Virus record (IMG/VR): IMGVR_UViG_3300031754_000017
Coordinates: 1-29,154 of that record
Strand: one strand, 5' to 3'
DNA length: 29,154 bases
Source of the DNA: a virus
Shown here: positions 21,390 to 23,744 of the stretch, piece by piece
Position numbering within the stretch: position 1 is the stretch's first letter
How the letters are laid out: each line of letters starts with the position of its first letter
Notes under the pieces: generated by a model
What the model saw: only the letters and a program-made list of their open reading frames with translations
The model's database searches: none
What the model was told of the DNA's origin: nothing
Made by a program: the position numbers and the translations under genes

Positions 21390-21467
21390 TGGTCGGAGTG
21401 GCGTGATTTGAACACGCGACCTCATCGTCCCGAACGACGCGCGCTAACCAGGCTGCGCTACACTCCG
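21390..21467 (-). tRNA. tRNA-Pro (anticodon CGG), CCA end encoded
   Basis: Read on the minus strand, the acceptor stem CGGAGTG pairs perfectly with CACTCCG. The D-stem is GCGC/GCGC, the anticodon stem CGTCG/CGATG (one G-T pair) with loop TTCGGGA, and the T-stem GCGTG/CACGC with loop TTCAAAT. The discriminator is A (21393) and CCA follows at 21390-21392. All conserved positions are present, so the gene looks functional. It lies in a phage region beside the att-like sequence, so it is either phage-borne or the host target gene at a prophage junction. Confidence 0.93.
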
Positions 21468-21513: not shown

Positions 21514-21737
21514 CGTTGCACAATCCGTTGCACCACTATTTGTCTGGGATTGCTAAGATCTTGAAATATTGGTCTAAATAATAGGATTAGAACCTTCGAT
21601 CTTATCGTCCCGAACGAAGCGGTCTAAGGCTCACGCGTTGATATTATTGACGTTTTTCGTTGCGTTTAGCTCAAATTGTCCCCGTTTGTTCCTCTCATTG
21701 CGTTGCATGCGTTGCACCAGGTCCTCTTTGCGTTGCA
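21514..21737. repeat. attP-like region: CGTTGCA arm-type repeats around a tRNA-like core
   Basis: CGTTGCA occurs in the same orientation at 21514-21520 and 21526-21532 (both as TCCGTTGCAC) and at 21701-21707, 21710-21716 and 21731-21737 (as GCGTTGCA). A near copy, CGTTGCG, lies at 21658-21664. The two left copies and three right copies flank the tRNA-like core (about 21604-21617). Clustered short direct repeats on both sides of a core, next to a tyrosine integrase gene, are the layout of integrase arm-binding sites. GGTCTAA also repeats at 21571 and 21621, flanking the core. Confidence 0.6.
21581..21627 (-). pseudogene. Decayed tRNA-Pro half (probable att core)
   Basis: The + strand at 21601-21627 matches the intact tRNA region 21421-21447 at 23 of 27 positions, with 14 bases identical (21604-21617: the anticodon stem-loop). 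Homology continues weakly through the T-arm (GATTAGAAC versus GATTTGAAC). The T-stem and acceptor stem are not complementary to any 5' half, so it is not a working tRNA. It most likely is the crossover region of the att site or a scar of earlier recombination. Confidence 0.65.
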
Positions 21738-22015
21738 CAAAGAAGTTGGTCCGCGAATTGCTCAACTAGGTCTTGGTCGTCGCGCGAACAGCCAATCGAG
21801 ATTTGACGTCCGCCGTCCAACTCAACCACGACCCATACTTCATGGTTCGGGCGCAACGGCCGACCGGACAAATATTCGGCGAGTTTCTTTTCCGCGCCCG
21901 ACCGGTCATCAGCGCGATAGCCAGTCGAGATATGACGGCCTCCGTCTAGGATGTACCAGAATTTGTTTCCGCGAACGTCGCGAAGCCATAGCCGAGGAGG
22001 TTTCTTTGGATTCAT
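21695..22015 (-). CDS. Stand-alone tandem integrase arm-binding-domain protein
   Basis: This 106-residue protein starts at ATG 22015, overlapping the upstream stop as ATGA. Residues 8-49 (RLWLRDVRGNKFWYILDGGR onward) match residues 9-50 of the neighbouring integrase at 32 of 42 positions, the N-terminal arm-DNA-binding region. Residues 61-91 (WVVVELDGGRQISIG, then DD, then FADQL) are a second, diverged copy of the same motif. No catalytic domain follows. The coding end overlaps the right-hand CGTTGCA repeats. A protein with two arm-binding modules and no recombinase domain could compete for, or bridge, integrase arm sites. That is inference. A decayed integrase fragment is the alternative, but the frame is intact. 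Confidence 0.7.
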   Translation of the reverse strand: MNPKKPPRLWLRDVRGNKFWYILDGGRHISTGYRADDRSGAEKKLAEYLSGRPLRPNHEVWVVVELDGGRQISIGCSRDDQDLVEQFADQLLCATQRGPGATHATQ

Positions 22016-22227
22016 GGCCGCCGCTCTGGTGATGGCGTGGGCGCCTGGGTAGGCTGCCCCTGTGGCGTCAGGTAGATGACGACCGGAGGCGGGGGCGGGG
22101 TCGAGCCGATCTTGTAGCCGAGCAGCCCGAACACGGCGGCGAAGATCGCCGCCATCGCGCCTAGAAGTACCGCAAGGTTGCGCGGCGTTTCCCAAAACGT
22201 CTGTTTGCGTCTGAGATCAATATCCAT
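22012..22227 (-). CDS. Small single-pass membrane protein with a Pro-rich tail
   Basis: This 71-residue protein starts at ATG 22227 with AGGAG 8 nt upstream. A charged N-terminus (MDIDLRRKQTFWETPRN) leads into one transmembrane helix (LAVLLGAMAAIFAAVFGLLG, about residues 18-37), then a PPPPP run and a Pro/Gln/Thr tail. Similar short proteins occur widely in Hyphomicrobiales genomes with no known role. It is the first gene of a two-gene unit with the arm-binding-domain protein (4-nt overlap). The pairing of a membrane protein with a DNA-binding protein beside attP is notable, but a joint function is unproven. Confidence 0.7.
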   Translation of the reverse strand: MDIDLRRKQTFWETPRNLAVLLGAMAAIFAAVFGLLGYKIGSTPPPPPVVIYLTPQGQPTQAPTPSPERRP

Positions 22228-22440: not shown

Positions 22441-23538
22441 TTATATCCGCCCCTTTCTGGTAATGGCGTTGGCGACCGCCTTGTGCTGATCGGGGCAGTG
22501 GTGCCCGTAGACGTCATTGATGACCTTCGGCGAGACGCCGAAGAAGTCGCTGACCTCCCAGATCGGCGCTCCGTTTTGGAGCGACCAAGAGATCGCCGTA
22601 TGGCGCAAAGTATGCGGCGTCACCTTCCCACCAAGTCCAGCCTCGACGACGCTCCGGGCAAACGCCTTCTTGACGCTAAGAACCGGCTCACCGTTGAATT
22701 CGACAACCGCCTTCGTCGAGATGCCGCGCCGCTTCCATCGGCGTATGTGGGCGAGAAGGCGATCCGGTAGCCGGACAGGCGGCTGGCGCTTGTTCGTCTC
22801 CGCCGTACCCGGCGCGCGGCGATAGAGGACGCCCTGATCGAGATCGACGTAGCCGCGGCCGATCGCGGGGCCCATAGCGGCCCCGCAGACGGCCGCCGAG
22901 CGAGTTCCGGTATAGATTGCGACCAAGATAAAGCGAGCGACGTGCTGGCGGCTCCTACGGCCCGTAGCGTGGCCTTTCTGGACTTCGCGGTAGCGCCACG
23001 CCGCTCGAATAAGACCGGCCGCCTCCGAACGGGTCAGCCATCGTTCGCGGGGCGCCGCCTTCGCCGGCAGTTCGATATCGCGGCGAAAGTCAAGATCGAG
23101 AATTCTCTCGTCGTATGCGTAGCCAAGCGCGGCGCGCAAGTCTTCAAGCTCGCGTCTTGCGGATTGCTCGCTGCCGCGGTGTATGGCGTAGTCCCGGCAA
23201 AGGCGCTTGTTGAGCGCGGTGACCGATTTTGTCCCGAAGAAGCCAAGCAGCGAAGTAACCCGCAGTCCAAGCTCATACGGTCGAGCAATCTTGGCGCCTC
23301 GATCTTGCTGGTAGATATTTAAGACTTCGGCGATCGAGATGGCAGCGGGGTCACGACCGCTGTCGCGGTTCGGCTTGACGTGGGCCGTGATATATTCCGC
23401 GAGCTTTTCTTGAGCCCCCGCGCGGTCATCAGCGCCGCAGCCAGTTGTGATCTGGCGTCCGTTGTCGAGGATGTACCAGATTTTGTTTCCGCGGACGTCC
23501 CTAAGCCAAAGGCGGGCGGGCTTGGCAGTATTCGACAT
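22441..23538 (-). CDS. int: Tyrosine recombinase (phage integrase)
   Basis: This 365-residue enzyme would catalyse recombination between attP and the bacterial att site. It starts at ATG 23538, three bases after GAGGGG. The arm-DNA-binding region is residues about 9-50 and the core-binding SAM-like domain about 65-155 (ISIAEVLNIYQQDRG). The catalytic domain is about 165-365. Visible active-site residues are Arg213 (TGTRSAA), Lys250 in the hairpin, His309 and Arg312 (PHTLRHT), and the nucleophile Tyr344 (DVYGHHCPD). At the usual second-His position a Gly is seen (DFFGVS), as in relatives with a YGHHxP motif. It overlaps the excisionase-like gene by 220 nt and lies about 0.9-1.9 kb from the att-like core. 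Confidence 0.95.
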   Translation of the reverse strand: MSNTAKPARLWLRDVRGNKIWYILDNGRQITTGCGADDRAGAQEKLAEYITAHVKPNRDSGRDPAAISIAEVLNIYQQDRGAKIARPYELGLRVTSLLGFFGTKSVTALNKRLCRDYAIHRGSEQSARRELEDLRAALGYAYDERILDLDFRRDIELPAKAAPRERWLTRSEAAGLIRAAWRYREVQKGHATGRRSRQHVARFILVAIYTGTRSAAVCGAAMGPAIGRGYVDLDQGVLYRRAPGTAETNKRQPPVRLPDRLLAHIRRWKRRGISTKAVVEFNGEPVLSVKKAFARSVVEAGLGGKVTPHTLRHTAISWSLQNGAPIWEVSDFFGVSPKVINDVYGHHCPDQHKAVANAITRKGRI

Positions 23539-23744
23539 AATCCCCTCATCTCCTCCACGCTCGCGAGCGTGGTGTATTGCTTTCCCGCGATCGTCTCGAC
23601 CGCTAACCGGCCCTTTGCAATTTCCCGGCGGAGACCGCTCGCGGTCATTGACCCATCGGGAAAAGCCAGTCTTGCGGCGATGTCGAGCCTAAGCGGAGTA
23701 TCCGGCGCGACGCTGGTCGGATCGACCATTCGAGCTTTGGTCAT
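23319..23744 (-). CDS. Excisionase-like / HTH DNA-binding protein overlapping int
   Basis: This 141-residue frame starts at ATG 23744 after AGGAAACC. Residues 17-70 (PLRLDIAARLAFPDGSMTAS, then GLRREIAKGRLAVETIAGKQ, then YTTLASVEEM) form a winged-HTH-type domain like excisionases and small regulators that commonly precede integrase genes in alphaproteobacterial prophages. The last about 73 residues (23319-23538) lie in another frame of the integrase N-terminal region. They are Ser/Thr/Arg-rich and low in complexity, so they may be non-essential overprinted sequence. If it is the excisionase, it directs excision by binding near the att arm sites. Confidence 0.75.
   Translation of the reverse strand: MTKARMVDPTSVAPDTPLRLDIAARLAFPDGSMTASGLRREIAKGRLAVETIAGKQYTTLASVEEMRGLCRILPSPPAFGLGTSAETKSGTSSTTDARSQLAAALMTARGLKKSSRNISRPTSSRTATAVVTPLPSRSPKS

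What the first reader, a model, noticed from the sequence alone, without database searches (positions are those of the whole stretch)
21695..22015. Stand-alone protein made of two integrase arm-binding modules, beside attP
Residues 8-49 match the arm-binding region of the adjacent integrase at 32 of 42 positions, and residues 61-91 are a second diverged copy. No recombinase domain is present, the frame is intact and the start overlaps an upstream gene. It sits between the presumed arm sites and int. A protein that occupies or bridges arm sites without cutting could control the choice between integration and excision, act as a directionality factor, or block superinfecting integrases. I know of no described factor of this design.
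Basis: partly seen in the sequence, partly recalled or inferred. Interest (0 to 1): 0.78.

Follow-up and report, generated by a model that had tools for sequence, protein, structure and literature searches.

The report
Stand-alone integrase arm-binding protein beside attP
A phage carries, right beside its DNA-integration site, a small protein made only of copies of the DNA-gripping end of its own integrase; it looks like a real protein that could occupy the integrase's docking sites without cutting DNA, but so far it is a one-off and untested.

Summary
ORF 21695-22015(-) encodes 106 aa. Residues 8-49 match the N-terminal domain of the adjacent integrase at 32/42 positions, and residues ~58-92 are a second, diverged copy lacking the first strand. 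No catalytic domain is present, and its ATG overlaps the stop of a small membrane-protein gene. Comparison with sibling phages fixes attP: TGCAACG arm-type sites flank a decayed tRNA-Pro(CGG) core. The P-arm sites lie inside the 3' end of this ORF. In most siblings attP follows int directly (median 86 bp to the tRNA T-loop; 843 bp here). Module 1 shows purifying selection (dN/dS about 0.16; 18 of 27 specific changes at third positions). The usual directionality factor is already present: an Xis homologue of Rhizobium phage 16-3 overlaps int. No homologue of this two-module protein was found in viral contigs, phages, plasmids or ~1,480 genomes. Independent arm-domain proteins without a catalytic domain do exist: arm + GIY-YIG between int and attP in Stappia, and an arm + Xis fusion. 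Best explanation: an integrase-derived, non-catalytic arm-site binder that competes with integrase and damps recombination. Binding and effect are inferred, not shown. Main rival: an incidental fragment duplication without a selected role.

The parts
21695..22015 (-). stand-alone two-module arm-domain protein, 106 aa (P0001)
   Evidence: intact ORF; HMM hits 3.7e-24 and 1.7e-7; codon-position bias
21869..21994 (-). module 1 (residues 8-49), beta-beta-beta-alpha, 32/42 identical to integrase residues 9-50
21740..21844 (-). module 2 (residues about 58-92), diverged and without the first strand
21698..21739 (-). C-terminal tail (residues 93-106), encoded by the three P-arm sites
   Evidence: direct reading of the sequence
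22012..22227 (-). 71-aa small membrane protein; its stop overlaps the start of the arm protein (ATGA); relatives sit elsewhere in other phages, without an arm protein
22441..23538 (-). tyrosine integrase, 16-3 type, 365 aa
   Evidence: Pfam Phage_integrase 3e-6, PHROG integrase 2.5e-36; 41-43% identical to integrases of 16-3, AP-16-3 and X2_25
23319..23744 (-). Xis (excisionase) homologue overlapping the integrase N-terminus
   Evidence: 44.6% identical to 16-3 Xis, E 3.7e-26, same overlap
21701..21707 (+). P-arm arm-type site (CGTTGCA on +, TGCAACG on -)
21710..21716 (+). P-arm arm-type site
21731..21737 (+). P-arm arm-type site
21570..21619 (-). attP core: decayed tRNA-Pro(CGG) anticodon arm and 3' half
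   Evidence: aligned by position and sequence to the intact tRNA-Pro 3' half at the attP of L010
21514..21520 (+). P'-arm arm-type site
21526..21532 (+). P'-arm arm-type site, 12 bp from the previous one
21390..21467 (-). complete tRNA-Pro(CGG) gene beside the P' arm
   Evidence: ARAGORN

Best explanation
P0001 arose by partial duplication of the arm-binding domain of a 16-3-type integrase, was doubled to two modules, and is kept as a protein. It is probably made from the same transcript as xis and int, by translational coupling to the small membrane-protein gene. It most likely binds the same TGCAACG arm-type sites as the integrase, possibly two neighbouring sites at once. Lacking core-binding and catalytic domains, it cannot form the arm-to-core bridges that integrase needs, so it competes with integrase at the arms and damps recombination, mostly once enough has accumulated. 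Shown: the domains, the intact frame, the codon-level constraint on module 1, and the attP map (by comparison). Inferred: expression, binding, and effect on recombination.
For: Homology of both modules to the integrase arm domain. Protein-level constraint on module 1: dN/dS 0.16 against int; P0001-specific changes at codon positions 1/2/3 = 7/2/18, neutral P 5e-5; 10 aa changes against 17.6 expected, P 6e-4. Confident beta-beta-beta-alpha model of module 1. Residues that track the arm motif in close relatives are mostly kept: L23 with Q28 goes with GTGCAAYGG (L010, L018, window int) and R23 with K28 with GTGGCCCAG (L015); module 1 has L23/H28 and module 2 has Leu/Gln. Arm sites are paired 9-12 bp apart. 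[quoted passage not shown] In KplE1, excess integrase lowers excision (PMC2951348). A second, independent catalytic-domain-less arm protein lies between int and attP in L051.
Against: Not found in any sibling phage, including those with 81-83% identical integrase, nor in viral, phage or plasmid collections. Module 2 lacks a strand and models at low confidence. Q28H, N25G, C33Y and G34R could alter DNA recognition. Part of the low dN/dS may date from before the duplication. The protein's C-terminus is only translated arm-site DNA. Fold searches gave no match to a solved arm domain.
Confidence: 0.42

Rival explanations
1. An incidental fragment: a recent partial duplication of int that landed in the int-attP gap, a place that tolerates cargo. 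It is still open by chance and recent ancestry and has no selected role.
For: Present in a single phage. Other siblings carry unrelated ORFs in the same gap: MazG-like in L101, nuclease-like in L117, membrane protein in L146 (these names are from reading the sequences, not from a family search). Genomes also hold truncated or frameshifted integrases that leave arm-only frames. Module 2 is incomplete.
Against: Third-position bias and the deficit of amino-acid changes on the P0001 branch; 63% of neutral simulations of module 1 alone acquire a stop; an internal second module is not what simple truncation gives; start-stop overlap with the upstream gene.
Confidence: 0.33
2. A directionality co-factor: P0001 fills a particular subset of arm sites (for example the P' pair) and biases the system toward integration or excision together with Xis.
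For: Overlaps and abuts attP; two modules suit the paired sites; an arm + Xis fusion protein exists elsewhere (L094), showing that arm domains can be joined to directionality factors.
Against: A normal Xis homologue is already encoded; arm domains alone are not known to bend DNA as RDFs do; the arm + Xis fusion has no integrase of this family within about 2.8 kb and may be a remnant.
Confidence: 0.15
3. A trans-acting shield against superinfecting or resident integrases with the same arm specificity, or a repressor of transcription through attP.
For: It would bind shared arm motifs; L018 shares the GTGCAACGG sites and L010 has the near-identical GTGCAATGG.
Against: No direct evidence; only two single TGCAACG sites occur elsewhere in the window and none at the int promoter.
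Confidence: 0.1

Closest known systems
N-terminal arm-binding domain of tyrosine integrases (lambda Int NTD, Tn916 Int NTD; 'AB domain' in PMC8138268)
   Same: same order of three strands and a helix, same gene of origin, same expected ligand (arm-type repeats at attP)
   Different: here it is a separate protein without core-binding and catalytic domains, and in two tandem copies
Int / Xis / attP module of Rhizobium phage 16-3
   Same: homologous Int (41.5%) and Xis (44.6%), same xis-int overlap, attP just behind int (annotated in NC_011103); integration at tRNA-Pro(CGG) in 16-3 is from memory
   Different: 16-3 has no annotated ORF between int and attP; arm-like repeat AATCATTGCC instead of TGCAACG
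Arm + GIY-YIG (MUG113/T5orf172) protein of a Stappia albiluteola prophage (L051 5705-6169)
   Same: stand-alone arm domain, encoded between a complete related integrase and a tRNA-Pro 3' end (presumed att site)
   Different: one arm module fused to a GIY-YIG-like domain; not homologous outside the arm domain
Recombination directionality factors (lambda Xis, KplE1 TorI, 16-3 Xis)
   Same: small DNA-binding protein acting, if at all, on att arms
   Different: these bind their own sites with a different fold (winged helix in lambda Xis, from memory); P0001 is built from the integrase domain, and an Xis is already present

Membership tests
Arm-binding domain of 16-3-type tyrosine integrases | sequence match to a profile of integrase N-terminal domains | tested here: met
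   module 1 3.7e-24, module 2 1.7e-7; 5000-shuffle control for module 2
Arm-binding domain of 16-3-type tyrosine integrases | three strands and one helix | tested here: met
   module 1 E8-14, E17-24, E27-34, H38-51 at pLDDT >90; same for the int domain. Module 2 has only two strands and the helix.
Arm-binding domain of 16-3-type tyrosine integrases | fold match to a solved arm-binding domain | tested here: inconclusive
   Foldseek and VIA-align list no integrase arm domain; small common fold
Arm-binding domain of 16-3-type tyrosine integrases | binds arm-type repeats at attP | not testable with these tools
   sites mapped; binding needs an experiment
Tyrosine recombinase (whole enzyme) | core-binding and catalytic domains | tested here: not met
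   no Pfam or PHROG match, no catalytic HMM match
Recombination directionality factor (16-3 Xis family) | homology to Xis | tested here: not met
   P0001 matches the integrase arm profile in its own frame; the xis-frame equivalent of the duplicated stretch carries stops
Recombination directionality factor (16-3 Xis family) | changes the direction of recombination | not testable with these tools
   needs in vitro or two-plasmid assay
Dedicated family of stand-alone arm proteins | homologues in several phages with conserved linkage to int/attP | tested here: not met
   none with two modules in viral contigs, phages, plasmids or sampled genomes; L051 is a different architecture

The most novel reading that the evidence does not exclude
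P0001 and the Stappia arm + GIY-YIG protein are two instances of a recurrent strategy: phages detach the integrase arm-binding domain and use it, alone or as an adaptor, to address other activities to attP (site occupancy here, perhaps attP- or rival-directed cleavage there).
Probability: 0.2. Interest if true: 0.75.

Novelty: new variant of a known kind. Interest (0 to 1): 0.5.

Why it matters
Integrase arm sites decide whether a prophage goes in or out. A natural non-catalytic arm-site binder encoded in the att module would be a new control layer on top of Xis and host factors, and a ready-made, genetically encoded brake for integrase tools. It can be tested with purified domains and a few oligos. 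The set of siblings with different arm motifs and aligned domains also gives a natural data set for the arm-domain recognition code.

Tried and rejected
(1) P0001 as excisionase: rejected as first choice because the 16-3-type Xis is already present. (2) P0001 as broken integrase: no catalytic remnant follows; the C-terminus runs into P-arm DNA. A 17/19-bp match between the 3' end of int and DNA just upstream of P0001 was seen, but it is too short to build on. (3) Searches for full-length homologues: viral contigs, phages, plasmids and about 1,480 genomes gave none. The viral and genome-contig scans use short exact peptide patterns, so distant relatives could be missed; the genome survey used the arm profile and looked for short frames. 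(4) Structure search against PDB with P0001 and with the int arm domain: no match to a solved arm domain, many unrelated matches. (5) Profile searches of PDB sequences and Pfam with the arm family: nothing significant. (6) Short arm-only frames in genomes were checked one by one: L077, L079, L080, L091, L092, L095 and L097 are frameshifted or interrupted integrases; L063 is a decayed integrase; L093 is an integrase cut off behind xis; L045 stops at a contig end; L076, L078, L096 and L098 are lone fragments without a convincing intact gene. (7) The small membrane protein was followed as a possible partner: its relatives occur in other phages without an arm protein beside them. (8) A tree of module 1 does not resolve whether it split from the window's own integrase or earlier (support 36-51). 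(9) Literature: no described stand-alone arm-domain factor found, in an open-access library only.

Full report
OBSERVATION. The minus-strand ORF 21695-22015 is intact and encodes 106 residues. Residues 8-49 equal residues 9-50 of the adjacent integrase (22441-23538) at 32 of 42 positions; at DNA level this is 96/123, E 4e-25. A profile built from related integrases finds the first module with E 3.7e-24 and a second one behind it with E 1.7e-7. The second module alone scores 32.5 bits while the best of 5000 shuffles scores 10.7. AlphaFold2 gives module 1 as three strands and a helix at pLDDT above 90. Module 2 is two strands and a helix at about 60-67, so it lacks the first strand and is less certain. 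Nothing of the catalytic domain is present. The ATG overlaps the TGA of a 71-aa membrane-protein ORF as ATGA.

SETTING. The window is a 29,154-base IMG/VR record. Its integrase is 41-43% identical to those of Rhizobium phages 16-3, AP-16-3 and X2_25. The ORF overlapping the integrase start (23319-23744) is 44.6% identical to the Xis of 16-3, E 3.7e-26, with the same overlap as annotated in 16-3. So the standard integration/excision pair is present.

attP. Lining up the DNA behind int with siblings L010 (83% identical integrase), L015 (81%) and L018 (66%) shows the same order in all: P-arm repeats, a GGAACAAA block, a tRNA-like core, then P'-arm repeats. In the window the repeats are TGCAACG, at 21701, 21710 and 21731 (P) and 21514 and 21526 (P'); L010 has GTGCAAYGG, L018 GTGCAACGG, L015 GTGGCCCAG. 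The three P sites form the last codons of P0001 (LCATQ...GATHATQ). In 42 relatives with a recognisable tRNA T-loop behind int, the median distance from the end of int is 86 bp; in the window it is 843 bp. P0001 and the small membrane gene thus occupy an extra stretch of roughly 700 bp between int and the P arm. The seven-base motif alone is not rare in the window as a whole (7 seen, 3.7 expected); it is the cluster of five in 220 bp, in the sibling layout, that carries the argument.

SELECTION. Module 1 against the integrase: dS 0.99, dN 0.16, ratio 0.16, differences by codon position 10/2/21. Against three integrases, the changes peculiar to P0001 are 7/2/18 by position. Random placement gives that third-position excess with P 5e-5 and gives 17.6 amino-acid changes where 10 are seen (P 6e-4); 63% of simulations acquire a stop. 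The xis frame, which also constrains the integrase copy, is broken in P0001, so xis coding does not explain its constraint. Limit: the branch includes time before the duplication, the tree position is unresolved, and module 2 has no close relative to test.

DISTRIBUTION. No second example of this protein was found in viral contigs, phages, plasmids, or in about 1,480 genomes searched with the arm profile. The profile is frequent in the order of G001 (the Stappia genome, Hyphomicrobiales; 54 of 397 genomes) and rare in the wider class sample (4 of 385). Among the short frames, most are broken integrases. Two are not: L051 5705-6169 (Stappia albiluteola prophage) is an arm domain fused to a MUG113/T5orf172 GIY-YIG domain, lying between a complete integrase and a tRNA-Pro 3' end; L094 4320-5012 is an arm domain fused to an Xis domain. 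So detaching the arm domain has happened more than once, but not as one conserved family.

MECHANISM. In lambda, Int subunits must bridge arm and core sites, and the pattern of bridges sets the direction (PMC4880445). In KplE1, excess integrase lowers excision in vitro and in vivo (PMC2951348). A protein with arm modules only should take arm sites without making bridges. The residues that track the arm motif among close siblings (L23 and Q28 with GTGCAAYGG; R23 and K28 with GTGGCCCAG; P0001 numbering) are L23/H28 in module 1 and Leu/Gln in module 2, so recognition of TGCAACG is plausible but not shown. I therefore favour a competitor that damps integrase (0.42), ahead of an incidental fragment (0.33), a directionality co-factor (0.15) and a shield against other integrases (0.10).

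COMPARISON AND NOVELTY. The domain is known; the stand-alone, tandem, attP-embedded use is not described in the papers found (open-access library only). It is filed as a new variant of a known kind. Interest is moderate because the function is untested and the protein is so far unique, though the tests are simple.

Noticed in passing
window 21390-21467 and 21570-21619: The phage carries a complete tRNA-Pro(CGG) gene right beside its attP, while the tRNA-Pro 3' half inside the attP core is decayed (T-loop and acceptor changed); L010 and L011 keep an intact 3' half and no full gene. It may replace a host tRNA that integration would break.
   Followed up: partly
L051 5705-6169 (+): Arm-binding domain fused to a GIY-YIG (MUG113/T5orf172) domain, encoded between a complete integrase and a tRNA-Pro 3' end in a Stappia albiluteola prophage; possibly a nuclease addressed to att arms.
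   Followed up: partly
L094 4320-5012 (+): Single ORF joining an integrase arm domain to a 16-3-type Xis domain; no integrase of the same family close by, next to a serine-resolvase-like gene.
   Followed up: partly
L101 5082-5334, L117 5131-5647, L146 5239-6034: Other unrelated ORFs (MazG-like, nuclease-like, membrane protein, named from reading only) sit in the int-attP gap of related phages; the gap seems to be a cargo slot in a minority of this clade.
   Followed up: partly
attP regions of window, L006, L009, L010, L012, L015, L018, L032, L070: Arm-site motifs differ widely between related integrases (TGCAACG, AATCATTGCC, CGGTCCGC, TGTACCAGA, GTGGCCCAG, CCGCACCG, AGCGGGGGC) while the arm domains align; a natural set for deriving a recognition code.
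   Followed up: partly
window about 22025-22043 against the 3' end of int (about 22456-22474): 17/19-bp match between the last codons of int (ANAITR) and DNA just upstream of P0001 in the P0001 frame; could be a trace of a head-to-tail int duplication or chance (E 0.007).
   Followed up: no
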